Shown: positions 21,571-39,472 of the stretch, piece after piece
Layout of the letters: the number at the start of each line of letters is the position of its first letter
Position numbering within the stretch: position 1 is the stretch's first letter
Source: Roseivivax halodurans JCM 10272
Lineage (GTDB): Bacteria > Pseudomonadota > Alphaproteobacteria > Rhodobacterales > Rhodobacteraceae
NCBI RefSeq assembly: GCF_000521785.1
Contig: NZ_JALZ01000022.1
Coordinates: 1 to 42,125 of the forward strand
Length of the DNA: 42,125 bases
Reading direction: 5' to 3'
Notes under the pieces: model-generated
Told to the model about the DNA's origin: nothing
The model's database searches: none
The model's input: only the letters and a program-made list of their open reading frames with translations
Made by a program: the position numbers and the translations under genes

Positions 21571-23220
21571 TCAGGCAATGTCCTTCAGGCGGAAGCGCTG
21601 GATCTTGCCGGTCTCGGTCTTGGGGAGGGCGTCGAGATAGGTGATGGCGCGGGGGTACTTGTAGGGGGCGATCTCGGCCTTGACGTGGGCCTTCAGCGCT
21701 TCGGTGAGCGCGGCGTCTCCGGCCTGACCTTCCGCGAGCACGACGAAGGCGGCGACGATCATGCCGCGCTCGTCGTCGGGCTGGCCGATCACGGCGCATT
21801 CGGCGACGGCGTCGTGCGAGAGGAGCGCGGCCTCCACCTCGGGGCCGGCGATGTTGTAGCCCGAGGACAGGATCATGTCGTCGTTGCGGGCGGCGAAGTG
21901 CAGGTAGCCGTCCTCGTCCATCGAGAAGGCGTCGCCGGTGACGTTCCAGCCGTTCTGCACGTAGTCGCGCTGGCGCGGATCGGCGAGGTAGCGGCAGCCC
22001 GTCGGACCGCGGACCGCGAGGCGGCCGACGGTGCCGCGGGGGACCTCCGCGCCGTCCTTGCCGATCACCTTCGCCTCGTAGCCGGTGACGGGCTTGCCGG
22101 TGCAGGCGGGGCGGTGGTCGTCGAAGCGGTTGGAGATGAAGATGTGCAGCATCTCGGTCGCGCCGATGCCGTCGAGCATGGGCTTGCCGGTCTTCTCCAT
22201 CCACTCGTCGTAGACCGGGGCGGGGAGGGTCTCTCCGGCGGAGACCGCGGCGCGCAGGGAGCCGAGATCCGCGCCCTCGTCCATCGCGCGGAGCATGACG
22301 CGGTAGGCGGTCGGGGCGGTGAAGGAGACCGTCGCGCGGTACTTCTCGATGATCTCGATCATGTTCGGCGGGCTCGCGGTCTCGAGCAGCGCGGCCGCGG
22401 CGCCGAAGCGCAGCGGGAAGACCGCGAGCCCGCCGAGCCCGAAGGTGAAGGCGAGGGGCGGCGAGCCGACGAAGACGTCCTCGGGGGTGACGTTCAGCAC
22501 CTCGCGCGCGTAGCCGTCGGCGATGATCAGGATGTCGCGGTGGAAGTGCATCGTCGCCTTGGGCGATCCGGTGGTGCCGGAGGTGAAGCCGAGGAGCGCG
22601 ACGTCGTCGCGGCCCGTCGGCACGGCGTCGAACCGCACCGGTTTCTCGAGCGCGAGGCGGTCGAGCTCGGCGTCGTGGTTGGAGGTGCCGTCGAAGCCGA
22701 CCACGGTCTTGAGGAAACGGCTCGACTTGGCGCAGGTGACGAGCTCGTCCATGAGCCGCGTGTCGCAGAGGGCGAACTCGACCTCGGCCTTGTCGACGAT
22801 CTTTGTCAGCTCGCCCGCGCGCAGGAGGGGCATGGTGTTGACGACGACCGCGCCCGCCTTTGTGGCGGCGAGCCAGGCGGCGACCATGGCGGGGTTGTTG
22901 GCGGAGCGGATCAGGACGCGGTTGCCGGGTTTCACGCCGAGGTCCTCCACCAGCGTATGGGCGAGGCGGTTCGTCCAGTCCGAGAGCTCCTTGTAGGTGC
23001 GGCGGCGGCCGTTTCCGATGAGGGCCGTGCGGTCGCCATGGCCTCTCGCCACCATCGCGTCCGTCAGTTCGACCGCGGCGTTCAGGCGCTCGGGATAGTC
23101 GAAGCCGTCCAGCAGGAAGTCCGGCCACTGGTCCGGCGGGGGCAGGTTGTCGCGGGTGAAGGTGTCGGTGTGGGCACTGGGGCCCAGCAGCTGGTCGAGG
23201 GTCGGTTGCGTCGTCGTCAT
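21571..23220 (-). CDS. Benzoate/2-aminobenzoate-CoA ligase family protein
   Basis: 549-aa acyl-adenylate-forming enzyme. The A3 motif FTSGTTGSPK is at residues 212-221, the hinge region follows (VTGDAFSMDEDGYLHF), and the catalytic Lys539 sits in PKTETGKIQRF. ADALVG is replaced by the ligase-typical ATEMLHIF segment. The size and FGLGG/PPLAFT region resemble benzoate-CoA-type ligases, including 2-aminobenzoate-CoA ligase (AbmG of Azoarcus/Aromatoleum). With kynureninase and an AbmA-like enzyme in the same island, anthranilate is the likely substrate. It is the last gene of the marR-crotonase-dehydrogenase-ligase operon, 87 nt after the dehydrogenase. Substrate is inference; family is firm. 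Confidence 0.88.
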   Translation of the reverse strand: MTTTQPTLDQLLGPSAHTDTFTRDNLPPPDQWPDFLLDGFDYPERLNAAVELTDAMVARGHGDRTALIGNGRRRTYKELSDWTNRLAHTLVEDLGVKPGNRVLIRSANNPAMVAAWLAATKAGAVVVNTMPLLRAGELTKIVDKAEVEFALCDTRLMDELVTCAKSSRFLKTVVGFDGTSNHDAELDRLALEKPVRFDAVPTGRDDVALLGFTSGTTGSPKATMHFHRDILIIADGYAREVLNVTPEDVFVGSPPLAFTFGLGGLAVFPLRFGAAAALLETASPPNMIEIIEKYRATVSFTAPTAYRVMLRAMDEGADLGSLRAAVSAGETLPAPVYDEWMEKTGKPMLDGIGATEMLHIFISNRFDDHRPACTGKPVTGYEAKVIGKDGAEVPRGTVGRLAVRGPTGCRYLADPRQRDYVQNGWNVTGDAFSMDEDGYLHFAARNDDMILSSGYNIAGPEVEAALLSHDAVAECAVIGQPDDERGMIVAAFVVLAEGQAGDAALTEALKAHVKAEIAPYKYPRAITYLDALPKTETGKIQRFRLKDIA

Positions 23221-23307
23221 CGGGCCACTCCTGTTGCCGGCCCGCGGGCGGACCGGGTGACGGGCGGGTTGTCCCGCCTCTGTCTGATGCGCGGGTCCCG
23301 CGGGCCC

Positions 23308-24468
23308 TCAGCCCGGGCGGGCCGCGGAAAGGGTCTGGCGCGCGATGATGACCTTCTGCACGTCCGAGGCGCCCTCGTAGATGCGCAGGGCCCGGATCTC
23401 GCGGTAGAGCCGTTCGACCGTCTCGCCCGACCGCACGCCGTCGCCGCCGTGCAGCTGGACGGCGGCGTCGATCACCTTCTGCGCCTCGTCGGTGGCGTAG
23501 AGCTTGGCCATCGCGGCCTCGCGGCTGACGCGGGGCGCGCCCTGATCCTTGGCCCAGGCGGCGCGGTAGACGAGCAGGGCGGCGGCATCGACGCGCAGCG
23601 CCATCTCGGCGATATGGGCCTGCACCATCTGCAGCTCGCTGAGGGGCTCACCTTGGACCTCGCGGGTCTGCACGCGGGCGAGCGACTCGTCGAGCGCGCG
23701 GCGGGCAAAGCCGAGCGCCGCGGCGGCCACCGTTGTCCGGAAGACGTCGAGCACCGACATGGCGATCTTGAAGCCCTGGCCGGGATCGCCGATCAGCGCT
23801 GATTTCGGGAGCCGCGCGCCGTCGAAGCGGAGGGTGGCGAGCGGGTGCGGGGCGATCGTGTCGAGCCGTTCGGCTATGCTGAGGCCGGGCGTGTCCGCGG
23901 GCACGACGAAGGCCGAAAGACCCTTGGCGCCCGGGCCCTCGCCGGTGCGGGCGAAGAGCGTGTAGACATCGGCGATGCCGCCGTTCGAGATCCATGTCTT
24001 CTCGCCGTTGAGCACGAAGGTATCGCCGTCGTCGCGGGCGGTCATGGCGGAATTGGCGACGTCGGAGCCCGATTGCGGCTCGGTCAGGGCAAAGGCGGAG
24101 ATGGCGCGGCCCGAGCGGGTCAGCGACAGCCATTCGGCCTGCTGGGCGGGCGTGCCGAAGAGCGAGAGTGCACCGGTGCCGAGGCCCTGCATGGCGAAGG
24201 CGAAATCGGCGAGCCCGTCATGGCGCGCGAGCGTCTCGCGACTGAGGCAGAGGGTCCGGACGTCGAGGGGCTGCGGGTCTTCGGGGTCGACCGCGGTCGG
24301 CTCGAGCCAGCCGTCCGCGCCGAGGCGGGCGACGAGGGAGCGGCAGGTCGCGTCGGTGTCGTGATGATCGAGCGGGCCGAGCCCCGCGGCCCAATCGTCC
24401 AGCGCTTCGGCATGGGCGCGGTGGCGCGGCTCTAGAAACGGCCAGTCGAGATAGGAGCGGTCGGCCAT
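23308..24468 (-). CDS. Acyl-CoA dehydrogenase
   Basis: 386-aa FAD enzyme, full length for the family. Signatures: [31 protein letters not shown] and the catalytic base Glu365 in IYEGASDVQ. It introduces a 2,3-double bond in an acyl-CoA and passes electrons to ETF. In this island it would act on an alicyclic or ring-opened product of anthraniloyl-CoA. Its start overlaps the crotonase stop (ATGA), so it is coupled to it. Confidence 0.93.
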
Positions 24469-25825: not shown

Positions 25826-25891
25826 CGAAAACGCCGGGTCAGGATCGTGGTCATGCCGGCGCAAGACCGGGTCCAACAGGGAGAGCCGCGC

Positions 25892-26722
25892 GTGATCCTG
25901 CATCAGATACGCGACTGGGACGACGCCTACGAGAACGGGGGAAACATCCCCGGCGGGGACGCCTATCCGGCGGCCTGGGTGCGTCCGGCCGAAGCGTATC
26001 GGGCGCAGGGCAACGTGCGGCTCGACATCCCCTACGGAACCGGCGACCGGAACCTCTACGATCTCTTCTTGCCCAGTGAGCGGCCGCGCGGCCTCATGGT
26101 CTTCGTGCATGGCGGCTACTGGGTGGCGCTCGACAAGTCCTACTGGTCGCACCTGGCCGCCGGTGCGGTGGGTAGCGGCTGGGCCTGCGCGATGCCGTCC
26201 TACGATCTCTGCCCGGATGTGACCATCGCCGAGATCACGGCGCAGATCGGCACGGCCATCACCCATGCGGCGGGAGAGGTGGACGGGCCCATCGTGCTCT
26301 CGGGACATTCGGCGGGCGGGCATCTCGTCACCGCGATGATGTGCGAGGACAGCCCGCTGCCCGAGGAGGTTCGGGCACGGCTCGTGCATGTGGTCTCCAT
26401 CTCGGGTCTGCACGATCTGCGGCCGATGCTGCGCACCGCGCGCAACGATCTGCTGCGGCTCGACATGGGATCGGCCGAGGCGAACTCGCCGGCGCTCAAG
26501 TGCCCGCTGCCGGGCATACGGCTCACGACATGGGTCGGAGGGGGCGAGCGGCAGGAATTCCTGCGCCAGTCCGCGCTGCTGACGAACATCTGGCGCGGGC
26601 TCGGCGCCGCGACGCGCGAGGTAGTGGAGCCCGACCGGCACCACTTCAACGTGATCGACGGGCTGGGAGACGTCCGGTCGGTGCTGATGCGGACCGCGCT
26701 GGAGGTCGCCGAAGGGGACTGA
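25892..26722 (+). CDS. Alpha/beta hydrolase, probable kynurenine formamidase (AFMID type)
   Basis: 276-aa alpha/beta hydrolase of the HSL-like group. Oxyanion-hole motif HGGYW is at 73-77, nucleophile Ser140 in GHSAGG, and the catalytic His near RHHFNVID (about 251). This combination is that of the eukaryote-like arylformamidases that hydrolyse N-formylkynurenine to kynurenine and formate. No classical KynB is in the window, and both kynA and kynU are in the island, so this gene fills the missing step. I chose GTG 25892 because AGGGAG lies 8 nt before it and the product begins near the family-like DWDDAYENG; GTG 25847 or ATG 25853 are possible but would sit at the predicted transcription start. 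Confidence 0.82.
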   Translation: MILHQIRDWDDAYENGGNIPGGDAYPAAWVRPAEAYRAQGNVRLDIPYGTGDRNLYDLFLPSERPRGLMVFVHGGYWVALDKSYWSHLAAGAVGSGWACAMPSYDLCPDVTIAEITAQIGTAITHAAGEVDGPIVLSGHSAGGHLVTAMMCEDSPLPEEVRARLVHVVSISGLHDLRPMLRTARNDLLRLDMGSAEANSPALKCPLPGIRLTTWVGGGERQEFLRQSALLTNIWRGLGAATREVVEPDRHHFNVIDGLGDVRSVLMRTALEVAEGD

Positions 26723-26730
26723 ACCGGAAA

Positions 26731-26834: not shown

Positions 26835-28031
26835 ATGACCTTCAAGACCTCGCTTCTGGCCCCGACCGCTCTGTCGCTGGGCCTCGCCACCGGCGCCTCG
26901 GCGCAGGACGCGCCGCCCTCCGCCGAGGACGACGTTCTCAAGATCGGCCTCGTCTACACGCTCTCGGGGCCCGCCGCGGCGCTGGGCGAGCAGGCCAAGA
27001 ATGGCTTCATGCTCGCCGCCGAGCGCATCGGGAATCTGGGCGGCATGGAGACCGAGATCGTCGTGATCGACGACGAGCAGCGTCCCGACAAAGCCGCCGA
27101 CGACGCGCGCGAGCTCGTGCAGCGCGAGGAGGTCGATTTCGTCGTCGGGCCGATCTTCTCGAACATCCTCGTCGCGATCCACCAGCCGGTGACCGAGACG
27201 GGCACGATCCTGATCTCGACCAACGCGGGTACGTCGAACTTCGCGGGGCCGGAGTGCAGCCCGAACTTCTTCGTGACCTCCTACCAGAACGACCAGAACC
27301 ACGAGGTCATGGGCGCCTATGCCGAACAACAGGGGTACCAGAACGTCTTCCTGATGGCGCCGAACTACCAGGCGGGCAAGGACAGTCTCGCGGGGTTCAA
27401 GCATTCCTACACGGGCGGCGTCGCGGGGGAGGTCTTCACCGAACTCGGCCAGCTCGACTTCTCGTCCGAGCTCGCGCAGATTGCCGCATTCCAGCCCGAT
27501 GCGCTCTTCACCTTCATGCCGGGCGGCATGGGTGTGAACCTCGTCAAGCAGTACGATCAGGCCGGGCTCTCCTCGATCCCGTTCCTGTCGGCCTTCACGG
27601 TGGACGAGACCACGCTGCCGGCGACGCAGGACGCCGCGGTCGGGCTTCTCGGCGGCGCGAACTGGGCGCCGGACCTCGACAACGCCGCGAACGAGGAGTT
27701 CGTGACGGCCTATATCGAGAAGTACGGCGCGGTGCCCGGCACCTACGCGATGCAGGCCTATGACGCGGCGCAGCTGATCGATAGCGCGGTCTCGAAGGTC
27801 GGCGGCGATCTCACCGACCGCGACGCCCTGCGCGCCGCGATCAAGGAAGCCGACTTCGACAGCCCGCGCGGAGACTTCTCCTTCGGGGTCAACAACTATC
27901 CCGTCCAGGACTTCTACCTCGTCGAGGCGGTCAAGCGCGAGGACGGCATGTACGGCACCTCGATCCGCGAGAAGATCTTCGACGACTACGTCGATACCTA
28001 TGCCGAGCAGTGCGAGATGGGCTCCTCGTAA
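26835..28031 (+). CDS. Branched-chain amino-acid-type ABC transporter substrate-binding protein
   Basis: 398-aa periplasmic binding protein of the Leu/Ile/Val (HAAT, Peripla_BP_6) type. A signal peptide covers about residues 1-23, with cleavage after GASA. The mature N-terminus (LKIGLVYTLSGPAAALGEQ) is typical. It captures ligand for the two permeases and two ATPases that follow. This family also serves aromatic acids, so in this island tryptophan, kynurenine or anthranilate is as likely as a branched-chain amino acid. The ATG at 26835 has AAGGGG upstream; 24 nt separate it from the first permease gene. Confidence 0.92.
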   Translation: MTFKTSLLAPTALSLGLATGASAQDAPPSAEDDVLKIGLVYTLSGPAAALGEQAKNGFMLAAERIGNLGGMETEIVVIDDEQRPDKAADDARELVQREEVDFVVGPIFSNILVAIHQPVTETGTILISTNAGTSNFAGPECSPNFFVTSYQNDQNHEVMGAYAEQQGYQNVFLMAPNYQAGKDSLAGFKHSYTGGVAGEVFTELGQLDFSSELAQIAAFQPDALFTFMPGGMGVNLVKQYDQAGLSSIPFLSAFTVDETTLPATQDAAVGLLGGANWAPDLDNAANEEFVTAYIEKYGAVPGTYAMQAYDAAQLIDSAVSKVGGDLTDRDALRAAIKEADFDSPRGDFSFGVNNYPVQDFYLVEAVKREDGMYGTSIREKIFDDYVDTYAEQCEMGSS

Positions 28032-28055
28032 GACAAACCGTCGGAGGCCGCGTCC

Positions 28056-28973
28056 ATGGCGAATCTCTTCGTGCTCCAGCTCCTCAACGGGCTCCAGCTC
28101 GGCGTTCTGCTGTTCCTGATCGCGGCGGGGCTGACGCTCGTCTTCGGGATCATGGACGTGGTCAACCTCGCCCATGGCGTCCTCTACATGGTGGGCGCCT
28201 ATTTCCTGGCGACCTTTGCGGCCCTCACCGGAAGCTTCTGGTGGGGGCTGCTGCTGATGTTTCCGGCGGCCATCGTCGTGGGGCTCGTGCTCGAGGTGGT
28301 GGTGATCCGAAGGCTCTACGCGCGCTCCCATCTCGACCAGGTGCTCGCGACCTTCGGCCTCGTGATGATCGCCAACGAGACGGTCAAGATCGTCTGGGGC
28401 GTCTCGCCGCTCTCGGTTCCTACCCCTGAGATCCTGTCGGGCTCGGTCCCGCTGATGGGGCCGCTGCAATACCCCGTCTACCGCATCGCGATCATCGTAA
28501 CGGGGCTCGCCGTCGCGGGCGGGCTCTACCTCGTCATCAACCACACGCGTATCGGCATGCTGCTGCGGGCGGGCGCCACGAACCGCACGATGGTCTCGGC
28601 GCTCGGCATCGACATCGGCAAGCTCTTCGCCATCGTCTTCACCCTCGGTGCGGTGCTGGCCTGTTTCGCTGGCGCGCTGGTCGCCCCGATCCTGTCGGTC
28701 GACACCGGGATGGGCGAGAGCGTGCTGATACTGACCTTCGTCGTCGTGGTGATCGGCGGCATCGGCTCGATCAAGGGCGCGTTCCTCGGAGCGATCCTCG
28801 TCGCCGTGGTGGACACGATCGGCGGCGTCTTCGGGCCGATCCTCCTGCGCTCTGTGCTCGATCCCGCGGCGGCGGGCCAGACCGGCCGGATGCTGGCGCC
28901 GATGCTGGTCTACATCCTGATGGCCGCGATCCTCTTCGCGCGGCCCGCGGGTCTCTTCGGAGGGCGCGCATGA
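28056..28973 (+). CDS. Branched-chain amino-acid-type ABC transporter permease (LivH-like)
   Basis: 305-aa inner-membrane permease with about eight hydrophobic segments. Family features: QLLNGLQLGVLLFLIAAGLT at the start, VNLAHGVLYM, and the EAA-like GATNRTMVSALGIDIGKLF. With the LivM-like partner it forms the translocation pore. It overlaps the next gene by ATGA and lies in one operon with the binding protein. Confidence 0.93.
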   Translation: MANLFVLQLLNGLQLGVLLFLIAAGLTLVFGIMDVVNLAHGVLYMVGAYFLATFAALTGSFWWGLLLMFPAAIVVGLVLEVVVIRRLYARSHLDQVLATFGLVMIANETVKIVWGVSPLSVPTPEILSGSVPLMGPLQYPVYRIAIIVTGLAVAGGLYLVINHTRIGMLLRAGATNRTMVSALGIDIGKLFAIVFTLGAVLACFAGALVAPILSVDTGMGESVLILTFVVVVIGGIGSIKGAFLGAILVAVVDTIGGVFGPILLRSVLDPAAAGQTGRMLAPMLVYILMAAILFARPAGLFGGRA

Positions 28974-29950
28974 CCGCCGCAACCGCTGTGCCGACCCGCG
29001 CACCCGCGCTCGCCCCGCGCCTCAAGGCGGCGCTGGTGCTCTTCGTGCTCTTCGCGCTGGTGCCGCCCGTCGTCATGGCGGCGGACGATCCGTTCCTCAT
29101 CCTCATCGCGACCCGCATACTCGCCTACGCCATCGCGGCGATGGCGCTCGATCTCATCCTCGGCTACGGCGCGATGGTGTCCTTCGGGCACGCCGCCTAT
29201 CTCGGCTTCGGCACCTACGCGGTGGCGATCCTGTCGAGCTACGGCGTCACCGACATCTTCGTGCAGATGCTCGGGGCGGTGCTGGTCTCGGCGCTCTTCG
29301 CGCTCGTCACCGGGGCGATCTCGCTCCGGACGCGCGGCGTCTACTTCATCATGATCACGCTCGCCTTCGGGCAGATGGCGTTCTTCTTCTTCATCTCGCT
29401 CTCGGCCTATGGCGGCGACGACGGCTACGGGCTGTCGCAACGATCCACCGTTCTCGGCAGCGCTATCCTCGAGAACGACGTCACGCTTTATTACGCGACC
29501 CTCGCCGTGCTGATCGCGCTCTTCGCGCTCTGCCACCGGATCGTCGGCTCGCGCTTCGGCCGGGTGCTCACCGGCATCCGCGAGAACCCGGTGCGGATGG
29601 AGGCGATCGGCTTCTCGCCCTTCCGCTACCAGCTCACTGCCTTCGTGATCTCGGGCTGCATGACGTCGCTCGCGGGCGTGCTGCTGGCCAACCAGGCGGA
29701 GTTCGTGTCCCCCGCCTTCATGTCTTGGCATCGATCGGGCGAGCTGATCGTCATGGTGGTTCTCGGCGGCATCGGCACTCTCACGGGCGCCATCGGCGGC
29801 GCTGTCGCCGCGCTGCTCCTCGAGGAGGTGCTCGGCATGCTCACCGAGCACTGGCAGCTCTGGTTCGGGATCTTCCTCGTCCTGATGGTGCTGTTCTCGC
29901 CCCGCGGCATCACCGGGCTCGTGGAGCAGATGCGGGGGAGGCGGGAATGA
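28970..29950 (+). CDS. Branched-chain amino-acid-type ABC transporter permease (LivM-like)
   Basis: 326-aa permease, second pore subunit. Typical sequence: DLILGYGAMVSFGHAAYLGF, then RFGRVLTGIRENPVRMEAIG (cytoplasmic coupling loop). About nine hydrophobic segments. Its start and stop overlap the genes on either side by 4 nt, so stoichiometric co-expression is expected. Confidence 0.93.
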   Translation: MTAATAVPTRAPALAPRLKAALVLFVLFALVPPVVMAADDPFLILIATRILAYAIAAMALDLILGYGAMVSFGHAAYLGFGTYAVAILSSYGVTDIFVQMLGAVLVSALFALVTGAISLRTRGVYFIMITLAFGQMAFFFFISLSAYGGDDGYGLSQRSTVLGSAILENDVTLYYATLAVLIALFALCHRIVGSRFGRVLTGIRENPVRMEAIGFSPFRYQLTAFVISGCMTSLAGVLLANQAEFVSPAFMSWHRSGELIVMVVLGGIGTLTGAIGGAVAALLLEEVLGMLTEHWQLWFGIFLVLMVLFSPRGITGLVEQMRGRRE

Positions 29951-30699
29951 GCCGGCTGGAGATCACCCAACTCAACAAGAGCTTCGGCGCGCTCAAGGTG
30001 ACCGACGACGTCTCGCTGAATGTCGAACCGGGCGAGGTGCATGCCATCATCGGCCCGAACGGCGCGGGCAAGACCACGCTGATCGCGCAGCTCTCGGGTG
30101 AGCTGCGGCCCGACAGCGGGCGGATTGTTCTCGACGGACGGGACATCACGCAGACGAGCATGCCCGAGCGCGTGCATCTCGGCCTCGCGCGCAGCTTCCA
30201 GATCACGCAGGTTCTGCCGAGCTTCACCGTCCTCGACAACGTCGCCCTCGCGGTGCAGGCGCGGCAGGGGTCGAGCTATCGCTTCTTCGGCAACGTCGCG
30301 AGCGAAGAGGCGCTGAATGCCGCCGCGATGCGCGCGCTCCGCGATGCGGGGCTCGAGGACCGGGCGGGCGCGCGGGCGAGCGCGCTCAGCCACGGCGAGC
30401 ATCGGCGGCTGGAGCTCGCCTGCGCGCTCGCGACCGAGCCGCAGCTCCTCCTTCTCGACGAGCCGCTCGCGGGCGTCGGCGGAGAGGATGCCGAAGCCTT
30501 CATTGCGCGGCTCCGGGCCCTGCGCGGGCGCCTCACGATGGTCCTGATCGAGCACGACATGGACGCGGTCTTCGCCCTCGCGACGCGGCTGTCGGTGCTG
30601 GTCTACGGCCGCATCATCGCCACCGGCACGCCCGAAGAGGTGCGCTCCGACCCGGCCGTCCGGGCCGCGTATCTCGGCGAGGAGGAGATGCCCGCATGA
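29947..30699 (+). CDS. ABC transporter ATP-binding protein (LivG-like)
   Basis: 250-aa ATPase. Walker A GPNGAGKTT is at 36-44, the signature motif is LSHGE (a variant of LSGGQ/LSYGE seen in this subfamily), and Walker B is LLLLDEP, followed by LAGV. GLARSFQITQVLPSFTVLDN is LivG-type. It powers the permease pair. The next ATPase gene is 91 nt away, separated by an inserted repeat, whereas all earlier junctions in the transporter overlap or are short. Confidence 0.92.
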   Translation: MSRLEITQLNKSFGALKVTDDVSLNVEPGEVHAIIGPNGAGKTTLIAQLSGELRPDSGRIVLDGRDITQTSMPERVHLGLARSFQITQVLPSFTVLDNVALAVQARQGSSYRFFGNVASEEALNAAAMRALRDAGLEDRAGARASALSHGEHRRLELACALATEPQLLLLDEPLAGVGGEDAEAFIARLRALRGRLTMVLIEHDMDAVFALATRLSVLVYGRIIATGTPEEVRSDPAVRAAYLGEEEMPA

Positions 30700-30717
30700 C
30701 CGTGATGCGCCACGCCC

Positions 30718-30750
30718 CTTCTTCTTGGCAAAAATACTCCCGCCGGAGGC
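30718..30750 (-). repeat. CAAGAAGAAG repeat, copy 5, inside the ABC operon
   Basis: Reverse-oriented copy: on the minus strand it reads GCCTCCGGCGGGAGTATTTT then TGCCAAGAAGAAG, nearly identical to 33233. It lies between the two ATPase genes. It is the only copy placed inside an operon; any terminator activity would act on the opposite strand. Confidence 0.85.
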
Positions 30751-30790
30751 CCCGGTCCGCCGGCCCGCGCCACCTCGCGGGGGCGCTGCC

Positions 30791-31477
30791 ATGCTGACGG
30801 TCGAAGCCCTCGAGGCCGCCTACGGCGAGAGCCGCATCCTCTTCGGGATCGATCTCGAGGTGCGGGACGGCGAGGTGGTGACGCTGCTCGGCCGGAACGG
30901 GATGGGCAAGACCACCACCGTGAAGTCGATCTTCGGGATGCTGAAACCACGCGGCGGGCGCGTGTCCGTGGGCGGGCGCGACCTGACCGGGGCCGAGCCG
31001 CACCAGGTCGCCCATGCGGGGCTCGGGCTCGTGCCCGAGGGGCGGCAGATCTTTCCGACGCTCAGCGTCGAGGAGAACCTGCGCGCCACCGCGCGGGCCG
31101 GCAAGTGGGACCTCTCGCGGATCTACGCGCTCTTTCCGCGGCTCGCGGAACGCCGCCGCAACATGGGCAACCAGCTTTCGGGCGGCGAGCAGCAGATGCT
31201 CGCGATCGGGCGCGCGCTGATGACCAACCCGCGTCTCGTGGTGCTCGACGAGGCCACCGAGGGCCTCGCGCCTCTCATCCGCGCGGATATCTGGGCGTGT
31301 CTTAGGCAGCTCAAGGACGAGGGCGAGGCGATCCTCGTGATCGACAAGAACGTGGACGCGCTCACCAAATTCGCGGATCGTCACGTGGTGATCGAGAAGG
31401 GCCGCGTGGTCTGGACCGGCACCACCAAGGACATCCTCGCCACCCCCGAGGTGAAGGACCGCTTTCTGCACGTGTGA
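30791..31477 (+). CDS. ABC transporter ATP-binding protein (LivF-like)
   Basis: 228-aa ATPase. Walker A GRNGMGKTT at 34-42, signature LSGGEQQML, Walker B LVVLDEATEGLAP. LivF-type region GLGLVPEGRQIFPTLSVEEN is present. The ATG at 30791 was chosen because an upstream in-frame ATG at 30725 lies within the dispersed repeat. Partner of the LivG-like ATPase. Confidence 0.92.
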   Translation: MLTVEALEAAYGESRILFGIDLEVRDGEVVTLLGRNGMGKTTTVKSIFGMLKPRGGRVSVGGRDLTGAEPHQVAHAGLGLVPEGRQIFPTLSVEENLRATARAGKWDLSRIYALFPRLAERRRNMGNQLSGGEQQMLAIGRALMTNPRLVVLDEATEGLAPLIRADIWACLRQLKDEGEAILVIDKNVDALTKFADRHVVIEKGRVVWTGTTKDILATPEVKDRFLHV

Positions 31478-31496: not shown

Positions 31497-31952
31497 ATGA
31501 CCATGCTGCCCGGCGTCACGAAGTCGAATTCCGGCATCGACGACATCTCCTGGAACATCCTCGGCCAGATCTACGTGCCGAAACAGCACAGCGAGGCCTC
31601 GATGGCGTGGCACGCGACGCTGCCCAAGGGCACGTTCGTTCCGCCGCACATCCACCCCACGCAGGACGAGTTCATCTACGTGCTCGAGGGGCGGTTCGAC
31701 CTCCTCCTCAACGGGGTCGAGACCTATGCCGAGCCCTCCGACCTGATCCGCCTGCCGAAGGGCATTCCGCACGGGATCTTCAACAAGTCCGATCAGGCGA
31801 TAAAGTGCCTCTTCTGGGTGGCGCCGTCGCGGCGGCTCTTCGATCTCTTCTGGGCGCTGCACAATCTCGGGCCCGACGCCAATCCGGCCGACGTGGTGGC
31901 GGTGTCAGCCGAGCACGAGGTCGACTTCCTGCCGCCCCCCGAGGAGGGCTGA
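31497..31952 (+). CDS. Cupin domain-containing protein
   Basis: 151-aa single-cupin protein. Metal ligands fit motif 1 HIHPTQDEFIYVLEG (His51, His53, Glu58) and motif 2 His92 (LPKGIPHGI), so it probably binds Fe, Mn or Ni. GAGGAAGGA precedes the ATG. Such cupins may be dioxygenases, isomerases or sensors; nothing identifies its substrate. It sits 20 nt after the transporter ATPase and 5 nt before the flavin monooxygenase, so it is likely part of the catabolic operon and acts on an intermediate of the same pathway. Confidence 0.87.
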   Translation: MTMLPGVTKSNSGIDDISWNILGQIYVPKQHSEASMAWHATLPKGTFVPPHIHPTQDEFIYVLEGRFDLLLNGVETYAEPSDLIRLPKGIPHGIFNKSDQAIKCLFWVAPSRRLFDLFWALHNLGPDANPADVVAVSAEHEVDFLPPPEEG

Positions 31953-31956: not shown

Positions 31957-33195
31957 ATGACGGTCCTGATCGCGGGCGCCGGGGTCGGCGGGCTGACGAC
32001 GGCGCTGATGCTGCACGCGCGCGGCATACCTTGCGTGATCTACGAGGCGGCACGGGAGGTGCGCGAGGTCGGGGTCGGGATCAACGTGCTGCCGCACGCG
32101 ATCCGCGAGCTTGCGGCGCTCGACCTTCTGCCGGCGCTTGATGCCGTGGGGGTGCGGACGCGGAAGCTGTCGTATCTCACCAAGCGCGGTCAGGAGGTCT
32201 GGTCCGAGCCGCGAGGCATGCATGCGGGCCACGAGGTGCCGCAATTCTCGATCCACCGCGGGCGGCTCCAGCGGGTGATCGCGGACGCGGTGCGCACGAG
32301 GCTCGGCGGCGCGGCGCTGAAGACCGGGCGCAGGCTCGCGGGGTTCGTGCAGGACGATGGCGGCGTCACGGCGCATTTCACCGACAGCGTCGAGGGCGGG
32401 GCTGGCGAGACGGTGCGCGCCCCGGTCCTGATTTGCGCGGACGGCATCCATTCGGTCGGGCGGCGCAGCTTCTACCCCGGAGAGGGCGCGCCCTCGTGGC
32501 AGGGCGTCGTGATGTGGCGCGGCGCGGCCGAGTGGCCGGTCTGGATGGACGGCGAGAGCATGGCGATCGCGGGCGGGCTCGGCGCCAAGCTCGTGCTCTA
32601 CCCGATCGCGCCGGCGGACGGGCATCGGCAGCTGATGAACTGGGTCGTGAACGTGCGGCTGAAGGATCCTTCCGTCTCGACGCCGCCGCCCGACAGCTGG
32701 TCGCGGCAGGCGCCGCTCGCGAGCGTTTTGCCCCACGCGCTGCGGTTCTCGGTTCCGGGCATGGATGTGGGTGCGCTGGTGCGGGCGACGCCCGCCATCT
32801 ACGAATACCCGATGGCGGATCGCGACCCGCTGCCGCGCTGGACCTTCGGGCGGGTCACGCTGCTCGGCGATGCGGCGCATCCGATGTACCCGGTGGGCTC
32901 GAACGGCGCGAGTCAGGCGATCCTCGATGCGCGCTGCCTCGCGGATGCGATGGCCCGGGCGGAGCATCCGCGCGCGGCGCTCTGGGCCTACGAGAAGGAC
33001 CGGCTGCCGAAGACCGCAGACGTCGTGCGCCAGAACCGGGTCGGCGGACCGGAGCGCGTGATCGACGAGGTGGAAAAACGCGCGCCCGCGGGCTTTTTCG
33101 ACGTGAACGCGGTGCTGGGCCTCGAGGAGCGGCGGGCCATCGTCGGCGGATACGCGGCGACGGCAGGCTTCTCGGCGGTGCGGCGGGTCTCCTGA
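31957..33195 (+). CDS. FAD-dependent monooxygenase (group A, PhzS-like)
   Basis: 412-aa flavoprotein of the aromatic hydroxylase type. FAD motif GAGVGGLTTALML near the N-terminus, the ADGIHS segment in the middle, and GDAAHPMYPVGSNGASQAI at about 304-324 are all intact. The family uses NAD(P)H and oxygen to hydroxylate aromatic acids; the sequence resembles flavin-dependent oxidoreductases related to PhzS. In context it could hydroxylate kynurenine, anthranilate or a lower intermediate. It ends the plus-strand operon and is followed by two dispersed repeats. Confidence 0.88.
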   Translation: MTVLIAGAGVGGLTTALMLHARGIPCVIYEAAREVREVGVGINVLPHAIRELAALDLLPALDAVGVRTRKLSYLTKRGQEVWSEPRGMHAGHEVPQFSIHRGRLQRVIADAVRTRLGGAALKTGRRLAGFVQDDGGVTAHFTDSVEGGAGETVRAPVLICADGIHSVGRRSFYPGEGAPSWQGVVMWRGAAEWPVWMDGESMAIAGGLGAKLVLYPIAPADGHRQLMNWVVNVRLKDPSVSTPPPDSWSRQAPLASVLPHALRFSVPGMDVGALVRATPAIYEYPMADRDPLPRWTFGRVTLLGDAAHPMYPVGSNGASQAILDARCLADAMARAEHPRAALWAYEKDRLPKTADVVRQNRVGGPERVIDEVEKRAPAGFFDVNAVLGLEERRAIVGGYAATAGFSAVRRVS

Positions 33196-33334: not shown

Positions 33335-34080
33335 TCAGACCTCGCCGCCGGCGATGGGGACGGCTTGCCCGGTGATGCCCTCGGAGCCGGGACCGCAGAG
33401 CCAGAGGGCGGCGGCGACCACTTCCTCGGGGCGGATCAGGCGGCGCTGGGGCGACATCTTCTCGAGGCTCGCGCGCGCCTCTTCCGGTGACATGCCGGTC
33501 TTTTCGGCGATGTTTGTGATGGAGCGCTGGGTCATCTCGGTGTCGAGGAAGCCGGGGCAGAGCGCGTTCGCCGTGATGCCGGTGCGGGCGAGTTCGAGCG
33601 CGGCGGATTTCACGAGGCCGATCGCGCCGTGCTTGGCGGCGGAATAGGCCGAGACGTAAGGGTAGCCCTTGAGCCCGGCCGTGGAAGCGATGGCGATGAG
33701 GCGGCCCCATTCGGCGCCCTTCAGGCGGATCGCGCCTTCGCGGAGGGTCAGGAAGGCGCCGGTGAGATTCACGTCGAGCATGTACCGCCAGGTGTCTAGG
33801 TCGGTTTTCGGGAAGGGCGCGCTCGCCGACGCCCCGGCATTGGCGACGACGATGTCGCAGGGTCCGGTGAAGTCGAACATCGCCTGAACGGCCGTCTCGT
33901 CGGTGACGTCGGCCTCGACGGCGTGGATGTTCGGATGATCGGCAGCGAGCGCCTCGAGCGGCTCGGCCCGCCGTCCCGCGACCCATGTGATCGCGCCGGA
34001 ATCCGCGAAGCCGCGGGCGAGCGCCGCGCCGAGGCCGGCGCCGCCGCCGGTGACGAGGGCGGTTTTTCCGGTGAGATCGG

Positions 34081-34084
<4 letters not shown>
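33335..34084 (-). CDS. SDR family oxidoreductase
   Basis: 249-aa short-chain dehydrogenase. TGGGAGLG at 12-19, NAG at 82-84, catalytic Ser134, Tyr147 and Lys151 (YSAAK), and CPGFLDTEM near the C-terminus. Its start overlaps the stop of the large monooxygenase/reductase gene (ATGA), so the two are coupled. AbmA-type enzymes produce a 5-oxo-cyclohexene-carbonyl-CoA, so this SDR is a natural candidate to reduce or oxidise that ring ketone/alcohol. Family is sure; the specific reaction is inference. Confidence 0.92.
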
Positions 34085-36369
<2,285 letters not shown>

Positions 36370-36421
36370 CGCGCGCTCCTGTCATGTGGTATCTGGCACA
36401 ATCCCATTCACCCAAAATCAT

Positions 36422-36447
36422 TTCAAGCCTAAAACTTTAGGCTTGAA
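36422..36447. promoter_or_regulatory. Palindromic operator between monooxygenase/reductase and thioesterase genes
   Basis: Perfect 12-2-12 palindrome TTCAAGCCTAAA-AC-TTTAGGCTTGAA in the centre of the divergent promoter region. It shares the TTCAAG/CTTGAA cores and 26-27 nt span with the site next to marR (25795-25821). A MarR dimer is the most likely ligand. Confidence 0.8.
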
Positions 36448-36501
36448 GTTTTTTGCATGCTGCCGGAGATTGAGCGGAAACGGCCGAAGGGGGATCGCCT
36501 G

Positions 36502-36954
36502 ATGATCACGAGCGGGGAGGCGCAGACGGACGGGGCGCCATACGCGCTGCAGATCCCGGTGATGTTCCAGCACTGCGATCCCGCGGGGATCGTGTTCTAT
36601 CCGCGGTATTTCGAGATGATCAACGCGGTCGTCGAGACGTTCTTCGAGCGCGCCGTCGGCTGGTCCTTCGCAGAGATGCACGGGACGGACCGCGTCGGCG
36701 TGCCGCTCGGCCGGATCGGGACCGAGTTCCATGCCGCCTCACGTCTCGGCGACGTGATCGACTGGACGCTCGCCGTGCGGCATCTGGGGGGGGCGAGCAT
36801 GAACGTGGAGATAGCGGCCACGTGCGAGGGCGAGGCGCGGCTGAGCGCGGAGGCGGTACTGATCCTCGTCGATCTCGACCGGATGCGGTCGATCCGTTGG
36901 CCCGAGGCGCGGCGCGCCGTGTTGGAGACTTTCGTGAAGGAGACGGAGACGTGA
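36502..36954 (+). CDS. Acyl-CoA thioesterase (4-hydroxybenzoyl-CoA thioesterase family)
   Basis: 150-aa hotdog-fold protein. HCDPAGIVFYPRYFEMI at 24-40 has the catalytic Asp26 and the 4HBT signature of Pseudomonas-type aryl-CoA thioesterases. It would hydrolyse an aryl- or acyl-CoA, perhaps to release a stalled intermediate such as anthraniloyl-CoA and recover CoA. The ATG at 36502 has AAGGGGGA at good spacing; an ATG at 36457 would add 15 residues and sit almost on the operator. Its stop overlaps the next start (GTGA). Confidence 0.88.
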   Translation: MITSGEAQTDGAPYALQIPVMFQHCDPAGIVFYPRYFEMINAVVETFFERAVGWSFAEMHGTDRVGVPLGRIGTEFHAASRLGDVIDWTLAVRHLGGASMNVEIAATCEGEARLSAEAVLILVDLDRMRSIRWPEARRAVLETFVKETET

Positions 36955-37352
36955 GCACGATGAACATTCACCCCGAAGGCTGGAAGCCCGCGAAAGGCTA
37001 CGCCAACGGCGTCGTCGGCGAGGGGCGCGTGCTCTTCGTCGGCGGGCAGATCGGCTGGACCGCCGCGCAGGTCTTCGAGGTGCACGATTTCATCGGGCAG
37101 ACGCGGCAGGCGCTCCGGAACGTGGCGGACGTGGTGCGCGCGGCCGGGGGCGAGGTCACCGACATCGCGCGGCTCACCTGGTACGTGACCGACAAGACGG
37201 AATATCTTGCCCGGCAGAAGGAGATGGGCGCGGCCTATCGCGAGGTGATGGGCTACCACTTCCCGGCGATGACGATGGTCGTGGTGGCGGATCTCATCGA
37301 GGACGAGGCGCTGGTCGAGATCGAGGCGACGGCGGTCCTGCCGGCGGAGTGA
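36951..37352 (+). CDS. RidA family protein (lacking the catalytic Arg)
   Basis: 133-aa protein of the RidA/YjgF/UK114 superfamily, with GRVLFVGGQIGW, RNVADVVRAAGG and ALVEIEATAV. Canonical RidA hydrolyses enamines/imines such as 2-aminoacrylate through an Arg in PAR(S/T); here the position is Met107 (FPAMT), so the standard deaminase chemistry may be missing. I chose GTG 36951, which overlaps the thioesterase stop and has AGGAG 8 nt upstream; ATG 36960 is nearly as good. Position next to an anthranilate pathway fits a role with an enamine intermediate. Confidence 0.88.
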   Translation: MSTMNIHPEGWKPAKGYANGVVGEGRVLFVGGQIGWTAAQVFEVHDFIGQTRQALRNVADVVRAAGGEVTDIARLTWYVTDKTEYLARQKEMGAAYREVMGYHFPAMTMVVVADLIEDEALVEIEATAVLPAE

Positions 37353-37365
37353 GGCTGGTACCCGG

Positions 37366-38553
37366 TCAGGTGACCCGGGAGCGTTTCTGGTAAGCCGGGT
37401 CGCGCCAGAGCTCGTTGCCCAGCACGTCGGCCAGCACGTCCACCGCGGCCAGCACGTCGTCTTCGCCCAGATAGAGCGGCGTGAAGCCGAAGCGCATGAT
37501 GTCGGGCGCGCGGAAGTCCCCGATCACGCCCCGTGCGATCAACGCCTGCATCGCGGCATAGCCTTCGGAGAAGCGGAACGACACCTGGCTGCCGCGCTTG
37601 GCGGGATCGCGGGGAGAGGCAAGCTCAAGCGAGGGGCAGCGCGCCTCCACCTCGGTGATGAAACGCTCCATGAGCGCGATCGCGGCGCTGCGCACCTCGT
37701 CCATGTCCACACCGTCCCAGACCATCAGCGCCTCTTCGAGCGCGGTCATCTGGATTACGGGAGGCGTTCCGACGCGCATCCGCTCGACGCCTGGCGCGGG
37801 ACGGTAGTCGATGTCGAAGGCGAATGGCGCCTCGTGGCCGAACCAGCCCTGCAATGCGGGCTCGGCACTGTCCGCGAGATCGGGCCGGACGTAGATGAAG
37901 GCCGGGGCGCCGGGGCCCCCGTTGAGATACTTGTAGGTGCAGCCGACCGCGAATTCCGCGTTTGAGGCGGTCATGTCCACCGGCACCGCGCCGGCGCTGT
38001 GCGCAAGGTCCCAGATCATCACCGCGCCGGCATCGTGTGCCTTGGCGGTGATCGCGGACATGTCGTGACGACGGCCGGTCCGGTAGTCGACCTCGGTCAG
38101 CATCACCGCGGCGACCTCCTCGCCGATGGCGCCGTCGACCTCCTCCGGGGCCACCACGCGCAGCTCGTGCCCGCGTCCGAGCGTCCGAAGCAGTCCCTCG
38201 GCCATGTAGAGGTCGGTCGGGAAGTTGCCGCTGTCCGAGATCACCACGCGCCGGTCGGGTCTCATCGCGAGCGCCGCGGCGAGGGCCTGATAGACCTTGA
38301 TCGACAACGTGTCGCCCATCGTCACCGAGCCCTCGGGTGCGCCGATCAGGCCGGCGATGCGGTTGCCGACGCGGGCGGGCTGATCCGCCCATTCAGCGTC
38401 GTTCCAGCCGCGGATCAGCATATCGCCCCATTCGTCCGTCACCGTGCCTGCGACCCGCGCCGCGACGCTGCGGGGCAGGGGGCCGAGCGAGTTGCCGTCG
38501 AGATAGATCACGCCCTCGGGCAGGTGAAAGAGCTCCTTGCGGGGCAGGGTCAT
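37366..38553 (-). CDS. kynU: Kynureninase
   Basis: 395-aa PLP enzyme of aspartate aminotransferase fold. The PLP lysine is Lys208 in GCTYKYLNGGPG; other conserved pieces are YLDGNSLGPLP, SDSGNFPTDLY, WDLAHSAGAVPVD and MRFGFTPLY. It cleaves kynurenine to anthranilate and alanine. The start shares one base with the tryptophan dioxygenase stop (TGATG), so the two are coupled. The stop faces the RidA gene 13 nt away. Confidence 0.96.
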   Translation of the reverse strand: MTLPRKELFHLPEGVIYLDGNSLGPLPRSVAARVAGTVTDEWGDMLIRGWNDAEWADQPARVGNRIAGLIGAPEGSVTMGDTLSIKVYQALAAALAMRPDRRVVISDSGNFPTDLYMAEGLLRTLGRGHELRVVAPEEVDGAIGEEVAAVMLTEVDYRTGRRHDMSAITAKAHDAGAVMIWDLAHSAGAVPVDMTASNAEFAVGCTYKYLNGGPGAPAFIYVRPDLADSAEPALQGWFGHEAPFAFDIDYRPAPGVERMRVGTPPVIQMTALEEALMVWDGVDMDEVRSAAIALMERFITEVEARCPSLELASPRDPAKRGSQVSFRFSEGYAAMQALIARGVIGDFRAPDIMRFGFTPLYLGEDDVLAAVDVLADVLGNELWRDPAYQKRSRVT

Positions 38554-39386
38554 CAGAGTCCTCCACGGACGTGCCAGAGCTCGGGAAAAAGCTCCACGTC
38601 CAGCATCTTGCGCAGGTAGGTCACGCCGCTCGTCCCGCCGGTGCCGCGCTTGAAGCCGATCACCCGCTCGACGGTCGTGACATGGTTGAACCGCCAGCGG
38701 CGGAAGTAATCCTCGAGATCGACCAGCTTTTCCGCGAGCTCGTAGAGCGTCCAGTGCCGGTCCGTGTCGCGGTAGACCTGCGCCCAGGCGGCCTCGACCT
38801 CCGGATCGGCCTGGTGCGGGGTCTCGCGGCGATAAGCCTCCGGCCCAAAGCCGCGGCCGGTCTCGGCGGCCAGCGCCTCTAGCGTGACATGGTAGAGCGA
38901 CGGACGCGCGAGTTCGGCCTCGAGCCTCGCGTGAAGGTCGGGGCGATGCTCGTGCACCTTCATCATCGAGCGGTTGCGGTTGCCGAGGACGAACTCGATC
39001 AGCCGGTACTGGTGCGACTGGAAGCCCGAGGACCGCCCGAGGCTCTCGCGGAACGTCGTGTAGTCGCTCGGCGTCATGGTGCGCAGAACGTCCCATGCCG
39101 AATTGAGCTGGTCGAAGATCCGCGCGACGCGCGAGAGGATCTTGAACGCCTGCGGGAAGGCCCCGGAGGCGACCGCGTCCCGCGCCGCATGGAGTTCGTG
39201 CAGCGCCAGCTTCATCCAGAGCTCGGACGTCTGGTGCTGGATGATGAAGAGCATCTCGTCATGCGCGTCCGACAGAGGATGCTGCGCGTCGAGAATGCGA
39301 TCGGTTCCGAGGTAATCGCCATAGCTCATGTCCCGTGCAAAGGACATCTGTGCGCCATCGTCGGACGGATCGAACGCATTGCTCAT
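38553..39386 (-). CDS. kynA: Tryptophan 2,3-dioxygenase
   Basis: 277-aa haem enzyme of normal bacterial length. The axial haem ligand is His235 in [11 protein letters not shown]; distal His51 in [10 protein letters not shown] and substrate-binding Arg113 in TTFRESLG are present, and the GTGGTSGV loop is intact. It opens the indole ring of L-tryptophan to N-formylkynurenine, the entry step of this island. It is first in the kynA-kynU operon, with a degenerate copy of the island's operator about 60 nt upstream. Confidence 0.97.
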
Positions 39387-39446
39387 CAGAGAGCCCTTCG
39401 GCAGGATGGACCGGACAGAGGGACGCTAGGGCCGGAGAATACTTAC

Positions 39447-39472
39447 TTCAAGTTTAAAATTTCAAGCTTCAA
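39447..39472 (-). promoter_or_regulatory. Degenerate operator and promoter of kynA-kynU
   Basis: TTCAAGTTTAAA-AT-TTCAAGCTTCAA has the same 12-2-12 layout as the 36422 palindrome. The left half keeps TTCAAG; the right half matches a TTTAGGCTTGAA-type half at 9 of 12 positions. On the minus strand, TTGAAA and TATTCT 18 nt apart could serve as -35/-10. Supports common control with the rest of the island, but weaker binding. Confidence 0.55.

What the first reader, a model, noticed from the sequence alone, without database searches (positions are those of the whole stretch)
21571..39472. Self-contained tryptophan to anthraniloyl-CoA degradation island with candidate genes for the unresolved lower steps
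Seen: kynA, an AFMID-type formamidase, kynU, an aryl-CoA ligase and a monooxygenase-OYE fusion are within 18 kb, joined by ATGA-type overlaps. Known: TDO, formamidase and kynureninase give anthranilate; the 2-aminobenzoyl-CoA route uses an AbmG ligase and an AbmA monooxygenase/reductase giving 2-amino-5-oxocyclohex-1-enecarbonyl-CoA, and the later steps are poorly defined. Inference: the SDR, crotonase, acyl-CoA dehydrogenase, RidA-like protein, cupin, second flavin monooxygenase and thioesterase encoded here are the missing enzymes and housekeeping for that lower route, with an ABC importer and MarR regulator. It would make an aerobic CoA-dependent alternative to catechol or gentisate routes.
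Basis: partly seen in the sequence, partly recalled or inferred. Interest (0 to 1): 0.82.

Follow-up and report, generated by a model that had tools for sequence, protein, structure and literature searches.

The report
Tryptophan-to-anthraniloyl-CoA degradation gene island
This bacterium carries one gene island that appears to break tryptophan down through anthranilate bound to coenzyme A, a route already known in outline, and comparing many genomes singles out a small, unusual Rid protein as the likely missing enzyme that removes the nitrogen.

Summary
At 21571-39386 lie genes for tryptophan dioxygenase, kynureninase, an AFMID-like hydrolase, an aryl-CoA ligase, a monooxygenase-OYE fusion (NF006101, 1275 bits, cut-off 1078), SDR, crotonase, acyl-CoA dehydrogenase, Rid protein, thioesterase, MarR, ABC importer, cupin and a second FAD monooxygenase. 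This is the aerobic 2-aminobenzoyl-CoA pathway described in Azoarcus evansii in 2001, so most "candidate lower genes" are not new. New here: (1) one Rid subfamily occurs in 68 of 68 family genomes with the fusion and 2 of 130 without, and in 69 of 71 against 0 of 327 in a phylum sample, also where unlinked. (2) The Arg that RidA needs is Met in 100 of 102 members. (3) The "hydratase" lacks both hydratase glutamates and keeps a PaaG-like Asp. (4) Tryptophan dioxygenase tracks the fusion (64 of 68 against 24 of 130) better than kynureninase. My reading: this Rid protein deaminates the CoA-bound enamine, which has no carboxylate for Arg to hold. Cupin and second monooxygenase look optional. No activity was tested.

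The parts
38553..39386 (-). kynA, tryptophan 2,3-dioxygenase
   Evidence: TIGR03036 396 bits, cut-off 390.7; Pfam Trp_dioxygenase
37366..38553 (-). kynU, kynureninase; TGATG overlap with kynA
   Evidence: TIGR01814 276.7 bits, cut-off 246.4; overlap
36960..37352 (+). Rid-family protein with Met104 at the place of RidA Arg105 (alternative GTG start 36951); proposed deaminase of the CoA-bound enamine
   Evidence: TIGR00004 53 bits, below its cut-off of 106; Met in 100 of 102 aligned; Met104 aligned to Arg of 2dyy without a gap; co-occurrence
36502..36954 (+). 4HBT-type acyl-CoA thioesterase
   Evidence: PF13279; TIGR00051 36.9 bits, below cut-off
34081..36369 (-). 2-aminobenzoyl-CoA monooxygenase/reductase (ACMR, AbmA-type): FAD monooxygenase-OYE fusion
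   Evidence: NF006101 1275 bits, cut-off 1078; FAD_binding_3 and Oxidored_FMN
33335..34084 (-). SDR dehydrogenase, ATGA overlap with the fusion
   Evidence: adh_short; overlap
31957..33195 (+). second FAD monooxygenase, accessory
   Evidence: NF005720 546.7 bits, cut-off 400; solved match 2rgj/3c96 E about 1e-81 (that this is PhzS is recalled); in 3 of 61 family loci
31503..31952 (+). small cupin, accessory
   Evidence: Cupin_2; weak matches to quercetin dioxygenase chains; in 10 of 61 family loci
26835..31477 (+). branched-chain-type ABC importer: SBP 26835-28031, permeases 28056-28973 and 28970-29950, ATPases 29947-30699 and 30791-31477
25853..26722 (+). AFMID-like alpha/beta hydrolase, proposed N-formylkynurenine formamidase
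   Evidence: a homologue beside tryptophan dioxygenase in Ruegeria pomeroyi; no TIGR03035 KynB in the genome
25262..25732 (-). MarR-type regulator
   Evidence: PF12802 and PF01047
24468..25265 (-). crotonase-fold protein, PRK08258 family, without the hydratase Glu pair
   Evidence: NF006107 477 bits, cut-off 330; residues
23308..24468 (-). acyl-CoA dehydrogenase
21571..23220 (-). aryl-CoA ligase, proposed 2-aminobenzoate-CoA ligase (AbmG-type)
   Evidence: TIGR02262 367.5 bits, cut-off 375.25; AMP-binding

Best explanation
A catabolic island that takes tryptophan through formylkynurenine, kynurenine and anthranilate to 2-aminobenzoyl-CoA and into the aerobic CoA-dependent (abm) pathway. KynA, the AFMID-like hydrolase and KynU give anthranilate; the ligase makes 2-aminobenzoyl-CoA; the fusion hydroxylates and reduces the ring to 2-amino-5-oxocyclohex-1-ene-1-carbonyl-CoA. 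The dedicated Rid protein then hydrolyses this enamine to 2,5-dioxocyclohexane-1-carbonyl-CoA and ammonium; Met replaces the usual Arg because the substrate's carboxyl is a thioester and there is no carboxylate to clamp. The crotonase, SDR and acyl-CoA dehydrogenase open and shorten the carbon skeleton, the crotonase not as a hydratase but by PaaG-type (single Asp) chemistry, perhaps a retro-Claisen ring cleavage. MarR regulates and the ABC system imports a substrate. Shown: gene content, recurrence, co-occurrence, residue patterns. Inferred from families: the steps up to the fusion product. Inferred and untested: the Rid and crotonase reactions.
For: Family matches. Recurrence within the stretches held: of 61 family loci (window included) crotonase 59, MarR 57, SDR 56, ACAD 55, ligase 51, Rid 36; of 80 loci of other bacteria ACAD 64, crotonase 63, Rid 59, SDR 58, ligase 50 (many stretches are cut by contig ends). 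Genome level, 198 genomes: Rid 68 of 68 against 2 of 130, crotonase 65 of 68 against 2 of 130, tryptophan dioxygenase 64 of 68 against 24 of 130. Phylum sample of 398: Rid 69 of 71 against 0 of 327; of the 69, 61 within 20 kb of the fusion. Residues. No above-cut-off anthranilate dioxygenase in 198 genomes. Literature: CoA esters of C7H7NO3 and C7H8O4 only in anthranilate-grown Arthrobacter, the latter suggested to be cyclohexanedione-carboxyl-CoA (PMC3534580, part 1 of section 12 read); in TdcF, Arg105 hydrogen bonds the carboxylate of bound ligands, and Arg-less Rid4-7 have no known activity (PMC4433059 passages).
Against: No activity, expression or metabolite data for this organism. In the passages I read, Rid proteins with shown deaminase activity have the Arg, and R104A of RutC is inactive (PMC8113886), so an Arg-less deaminase would be a departure. 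The C7H8O4 ester could arise by spontaneous deamination. The standard name of the fusion family is salicylyl-CoA 5-hydroxylase (NF006101). Seven of 80 non-family loci, among them Aromatoleum buckelii L116, and two of 61 family loci (L049, a short contig; L071) have none of crotonase, ACAD, SDR and Rid in the stretch held; in the genome of L071 (G134) crotonase and Rid lie about 600 kb away. Two fusion genomes of the phylum sample (G487, G539) lack a Rid match. Co-occurrence counts are not corrected for shared ancestry. No thiolase was among the frames scanned in the island.
Confidence: 0.8

Rival explanations
1. The fusion and ligase act on salicylate (salicylyl-CoA 5-hydroxylase route to gentisyl-CoA), and the kyn genes lie beside them by chance.
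For: NCBIfam names the family salicylyl-CoA 5-hydroxylase/oxidoreductase, and many plasmid records carry that name.
Against: Tryptophan dioxygenase occurs in 64 of 68 genomes with the fusion and 24 of 130 without. A dedicated Rid protein, a family tied to enamines, fits an amino substrate. The cupin is a short Cupin_2 protein, not an obvious gentisate dioxygenase. Salicylate genes were not searched.
Confidence: 0.08
2. The Rid protein does not catalyse the pathway step. It is a protective protein, or binds an intermediate, while the enamine is hydrolysed spontaneously or after ring opening.
For: The classical catalytic Arg is absent. Rid4-7 lack the Arg and are thought not to hydrolyse imines (PMC4433059 passages). 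The amino product is reported as unstable at pH below 5 (PMC3534580).
Against: Near one-to-one co-occurrence with the fusion, also where the genes lie far apart. A merely helpful protein should be optional, like the thioesterase (27 of 61 family loci) or the cupin (10 of 61) (these two were not counted genome-wide).
Confidence: 0.35
3. The cupin and second FAD monooxygenase form a side route that feeds the island from another N-heteroaromatic, for example a 4-quinolone cleaved after 3-hydroxylation to an N-acyl anthranilate that the alpha/beta hydrolase releases.
For: Both genes sit downstream of the importer. The cupin's best solved matches are quercetin dioxygenase chains, weak, and the monooxygenase's best solved match is 2rgj/3c96, recalled to be PhzS, which acts on a heteroaromatic. 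The two occur together in the window, L082, L093 and Roseivivax L036.
Against: The cupin occurs without the monooxygenase in 7 of its 10 family loci, within the stretches held, and beside the ligase in Ruegeria. No substrate is known.
Confidence: 0.1

Closest known systems
Azoarcus evansii aerobic 2-aminobenzoate (abm) gene cluster, Schuhle et al. 2001 (PMC95408, not held, abstract recalled; seen through passages of PMC8388817 and PMC4539516)
   Same: Ligase, 2-aminobenzoyl-CoA monooxygenase/reductase fusion, three beta-oxidation-type genes, substrate-binding protein, MarR and a Rid-type protein (gene list recalled).
   Different: Here joined to kynA, kynU and an AFMID-like hydrolase, a full importer, cupin, second FAD monooxygenase and thioesterase; split into five blocks on both strands.
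Ruegeria pomeroyi DSS-3 megaplasmid locus (L037)
   Same: Tryptophan dioxygenase, AFMID-like hydrolase, fusion, SDR, MarR, crotonase, ACAD, cupin, ligase, Rid.
   Different: No kynU, importer, thioesterase or second FAD monooxygenase found in the stretch; other gene order.
Roseivivax sp. THAF197b plasmid locus (L036)
   Same: Most of the gene set in a similar block order, with importer, cupin and second FAD monooxygenase.
   Different: kynA lies between ACAD and ligase; no kynU or AFMID-like hydrolase found in the stretch.
Arthrobacter sp. Rue61a anthranilate-CoA pathway (PMC3534580; pAL1 locus L100)
   Same: Ligase, fusion, Rid, a cupin, a thioesterase-type protein; CoA esters found by LC-MS in anthranilate-grown cells.
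   Different: Fed by quinaldine; SDR, crotonase and ACAD are not in the stretch; a fumarylacetoacetate-hydrolase-family protein is.
RidA/RutC enamine-imine deaminases
   Same: Fold family; invariant Glu120 and conserved Tyr.
   Different: Met instead of the catalytic Arg; partner of one pathway.

Membership tests
Aerobic 2-aminobenzoyl-CoA (abm) pathway | Monooxygenase-OYE fusion (ACMR) | tested here: met
   NF006101 1275 bits over cut-off 1078
Aerobic 2-aminobenzoyl-CoA (abm) pathway | 2-aminobenzoate-CoA ligase beside it | tested here: inconclusive
   Aryl-CoA ligase present, TIGR02262 just under cut-off; substrate not testable
Aerobic 2-aminobenzoyl-CoA (abm) pathway | Beta-oxidation-type genes, MarR, substrate-binding protein, Rid in the cluster | tested here: met
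Aerobic 2-aminobenzoyl-CoA (abm) pathway | Turnover of 2-aminobenzoyl-CoA | not testable with these tools
   needs an enzyme assay
Kynurenine pathway, anthranilate branch | Tryptophan 2,3-dioxygenase and kynureninase | tested here: met
   TIGR03036 and TIGR01814 over cut-offs
Kynurenine pathway, anthranilate branch | Standard KynB arylformamidase | tested here: not met
   TIGR03035 finds nothing in the genome at E 0.001; an AFMID-like hydrolase is the substitute candidate
RidA imine deaminase | Catalytic Arg105 | tested here: not met
   Met in 100 of 102; Met104 aligned to Arg of 2dyy; the best solved match, 5v4f, has no Arg there either
RidA imine deaminase | Family score over cut-off | tested here: not met
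   TIGR00004 53 bits, cut-off 106
Enoyl-CoA hydratase (crotonase) | Both catalytic Glu (144 and 164 of the rat enzyme, recalled) | tested here: not met
   Ile/Met/Leu in 127 of 127 and Arg/Lys in 127 of 127 at the two places; placed by alignment to a FadJ-type protein with both Glu
PaaG-type isomerase | Catalytic Asp after the GL motif (recalled) | tested here: met
   Asp147 in 127 of 127, aligned to Asp of 4fzw_C beside a one-residue gap; activity untested
Salicylyl-CoA 5-hydroxylase | Link to salicylate genes rather than tryptophan genes | tested here: inconclusive
   Tryptophan dioxygenase tracks the fusion; salicylate genes were not searched

The most novel reading that the evidence does not exclude
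The Rid proteins tied to this pathway are a dedicated subfamily: the missing 2-amino-5-oxocyclohex-1-ene-1-carbonyl-CoA deaminases. They hydrolyse a CoA-thioester enamine without the Arg thought essential, because that Arg only clamps a free carboxylate. This would give Arg-less Rid proteins a pathway role and fix the first lower step of the route, followed by ring opening by a crotonase that is not a hydratase.
Probability: 0.5. Interest if true: 0.72.

Novelty: new member of a known kind. Interest (0 to 1): 0.52.

Why it matters
The lower half of the aerobic anthranilate-CoA pathway was left as beta-oxidation-type steps in 2001, and a 2022 effort to annotate bacterial catabolism left out tryptophan breakdown by this route for lack of knowledge (PMC9007349 passage). 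The genome comparison narrows the open step to two named proteins with unusual active sites and gives a direct test. If the Rid protein is the deaminase, it revises the rule that Rid proteins without the Arg are not deaminases. In the family sample about a third of genomes carry the fusion (68 of 198, 65 of them over the curated cut-off), so the result would bear on how many bacteria recycle tryptophan nitrogen.

Tried and rejected
Kynureninase as the marker of the route: rejected, since it occurs in 160 of 198 genomes and separates weakly (63 of 68 against 97 of 130; my reading of the list). Tryptophan dioxygenase separates much better; note that of the 88 genomes counted for it (E up to 1e-50) only 52 pass the family's own cut-off.

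Gentisate or 3-hydroxyanthranilate dioxygenase role for the cupin: not suggested by the family matches and not pursued. Competing route by anthranilate 1,2-dioxygenase: 0 of 198 genomes over the cut-off, 6 weaker matches, of which 2 (G023, G186) also carry the fusion.

Aromatoleum buckelii (L116) as a stand-in for the A. evansii cluster: its stretch has the fusion but none of the other window genes; ten of its frames were scanned, one gave copper-efflux domains and nine gave nothing. The A. evansii cluster itself was not reached.

No structure prediction or fold search was run: homology was already clear.

Counts and what was dropped. Of 68 fusion genomes in the family sample, 60 plus the window's own gave loci; seven were not fetched (G019, G021, G055, G069, G139, G142, G155). 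One search is a plain tblastn table; one search used loose thresholds; the locus figures quoted are with stricter, hand-set bit thresholds. The Rid alignment left out one weak family match cut by the end of its stretch (L059, 40.6 bits). Two of the 13 kynU matches near the fusion are distant (L049, L056; 26-27% identity). The Rid model A2 was built from 21 fusion-linked sequences, so its high scores on linked copies are partly by construction; the tests are unlinked copies and genomes without the fusion. In the phylum searches only the first 2 or up to 10 candidates per genome were scored. The genome lists and coordinates used were copied by hand. Fisher p values (1e-26 to 1e-75) ignore shared ancestry.

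Papers. Seven were opened with paper reading: PMC3534580 (passages and part 1 of 2 of section 12), and passages only of PMC8388817, PMC4539516, PMC9007349, PMC4433059, PMC8113886 and PMC6742747. Others were seen only as search listings. I saw no paper that joins Rid proteins with this pathway in one search (44 papers, 15 seen as listings, none of those 15 with either CoA term). Kynureninase with 2-aminobenzoyl-CoA: 0 papers; kynureninase with anthraniloyl-CoA: 1 quinolone review (listing); kynurenine with salicylyl-CoA: 1 paper on a natural product (listing). Most subscription journals are not held, so this is no proof of absence.

Full report
The window is a whole contig (G000:C22, 42,125 bases). 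The best plasmid-record match of its fusion gene is Roseivivax sp. THAF197b (83% identity). The genes form five blocks: kynA-kynU (minus), thioesterase-Rid (plus), fusion-SDR (minus), AFMID-like hydrolase-importer-cupin-FAD monooxygenase (plus), MarR-crotonase-ACAD-ligase (minus). Start/stop overlaps join genes within blocks. The first ATG of KynA is at 39386.

What it is. The fusion scores 1275 bits against NF006101 (cut-off 1078), labelled salicylyl-CoA 5-hydroxylase/oxidoreductase. The A. evansii enzyme of the same build is 2-aminobenzoyl-CoA monooxygenase/reductase. The 2001 A. evansii paper is not held; from memory its abstract lists ligase, fusion, three beta-oxidation genes, a substrate-binding protein, MarR and a putative translation inhibitor, that is, a Rid protein. 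Reviews seen in passages give the first two steps and beta-oxidation-type further steps. PMC9007349 names tryptophan degradation via anthraniloyl-CoA monooxygenase/reductase among pathways omitted for lack of knowledge (passage).

Which substrate. In 198 genomes of the same family, each of its own genus, 68 have the fusion at E 1e-150 or better, 65 of them over the curated cut-off. Tryptophan dioxygenase (E up to 1e-50) is in 64 of these 68 and in 24 of the other 130. Kynureninase is in 160 of 198 and separates weakly, 63 of 68 against 97 of 130. No genome has an above-cut-off anthranilate 1,2-dioxygenase; six have weaker matches. This favours anthranilate over salicylate. Near the fusion, kynA is found in 20 and kynU in 13 of 61 family loci, in several orders, so the tryptophan island is a recurrent type and not unique to this window. 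The genome lacks the standard KynB, and in Ruegeria pomeroyi an AFMID-like hydrolase adjoins tryptophan dioxygenase; hence formamidase is the likely role of the hydrolase, although NCBIfam names it a hormone-sensitive lipase.

Core and accessory genes. Over 61 family loci (window included) the stretches held contain crotonase 59, MarR 57, SDR 56, ACAD 55, ligase 51, Rid 36, thioesterase 27, AFMID-like 12, cupin 10, second FAD monooxygenase 3. Over 80 loci of other bacteria: ACAD 64, crotonase 63, Rid 59, SDR 58, ligase 50, MarR 49, thioesterase 28, kynU 6, kynA 5, cupin 2, FAD monooxygenase 0 (contig ends cut many). Two family loci and seven of the 80 have none of crotonase, ACAD, SDR and Rid in the stretch held. 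Annotated plasmid loci in Comamonas, Arthrobacter, Deinococcus and the archaeon Haladaptatus also carry a Rid protein with fusion and ligase. The cupin and second FAD monooxygenase are therefore probably not part of the shared lower route.

The Rid protein. A profile of 21 fusion-linked Rid proteins (A2) splits the 198 family genomes cleanly: 70 genomes have a match of 141 bits or more, and the next match listed is 79 bits. All 68 fusion genomes are among the 70; the other two are G064 and G108. G108 carries ligase, ACAD, crotonase, MarR, SDR and Rid side by side with no fusion found between SDR and Rid (L203). In 398 genomes across the phylum, 69 of 71 fusion genomes and 0 of 327 others have a match at E 1e-25 or better; the exceptions are G487 and G539. 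In 61 of the 69 it lies within 20 kb of the fusion; in the other 8 it is farther off or on another contig. In the family, of 18 copies outside the first stretches that I fetched, 10 lie more than 40 kb away or on another contig and 8 lie 10-15 kb away (my reading). Retention when unlinked speaks for function and not mere hitch-hiking. The counts are not corrected for ancestry.

Its active site. At the place of RidA Arg105, 100 of 102 aligned linked proteins have Met, one Ile (L120) and one Leu (L102, Haladaptatus). The alignment to 2dyy, which has Arg, is gap-free there; the best solved match, 5v4f, has no Arg. Of the 42 loci looked at (from; the window's own copy included), 40 gave a Rid sequence: all 24 scoring 159 bits or more have Met and all 16 scoring 80 bits or fewer have Ala, Cys, Ser, Gln, Thr or Asn; L184 and L204 gave none. 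Glu120 is invariant in 102 of 102 and Tyr14 is Tyr or Phe. The literature holds that the Arg is needed for imine hydrolysis, that in TdcF it hydrogen bonds ligand carboxylates, and that the Arg-less Rid4-7 have no known activity (PMC4433059; PMC8113886; passages). In this pathway the enamine's carboxyl is a CoA thioester, so no carboxylate clamp is needed. Anthranilate-grown Arthrobacter holds CoA esters of C7H7NO3 and C7H8O4 not seen otherwise, the second suggested to be cyclohexanedione-carboxyl-CoA (PMC3534580), which is what deamination of the fusion product would give. I infer that this Rid protein is the deaminase; I put that at about one in two.

The crotonase. It belongs to NF006107. 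Against a FadJ-type protein (L037) the two hydratase Glu fall on Ile118 and Arg140; over 127 aligned linked proteins these places hold Ile/Met/Leu and Arg/Lys only. Asp147, 127 of 127, aligns with an Asp of the 1,2-epoxyphenylacetyl-CoA isomerase 4fzw_C (PaaG), beside a one-residue gap. It is thus unlikely to be a standard hydratase. A ring-opening or isomerase role fits but is a guess. The haloarchaeal cluster uses another crotonase (23% identity to the window's). The crotonase tracks the fusion in 65 of 68 against 2 of 130 genomes.

Verdict. The useful additions are the near one-to-one Rid link, its Arg-to-Met difference and the non-hydratase crotonase, which make the unsolved lower steps testable. 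All functions remain predicted.

Noticed in passing
window 16587-20566: An Lrp/AsnC-type regulator and an indolepyruvate ferredoxin oxidoreductase-family protein (PRK13030) stand next to the tryptophan island, another aromatic amino acid function.
   Followed up: no
L203 (G108:C49): Ligase, ACAD, crotonase, MarR, SDR and Rid side by side with no fusion between SDR and Rid: a true loss or an assembly fault.
   Followed up: partly
L221, L222, L223 (G108, G019, G169): Second Rid copies of about 160 bits, also with the Met, on other contigs than the main copy.
   Followed up: partly
L102 (Haladaptatus plasmid): A haloarchaeal version: fusion, ligase, Rid with Leu at the Arg place, ACAD, MaoC-type protein, SDR and a different crotonase.
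   Followed up: partly
L116 (Aromatoleum buckelii) and L121, L134, L140, L141, L165, L182: Fusion homologues with none of crotonase, ACAD, SDR and Rid in the stretch held; for some the stretch is short, others may have another role.
   Followed up: partly
L101 (Deinococcus psychrotolerans plasmid) and L100 (Arthrobacter pAL1): Extra genes that could serve ring opening: a cyclase-family and a thiamine-diphosphate protein in L101, a fumarylacetoacetate-hydrolase-family protein in L100.
   Followed up: no
window 20571-21377: DUF6635 protein just downstream of the ligase; no match in the stretches of the 60 other family loci, 7 plasmid loci and 80 genome loci, so probably not part of the route.
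   Followed up: yes
window 41016-41774: A further SDR (PRK06947-like, below cut-off) upstream of kynA.
   Followed up: no
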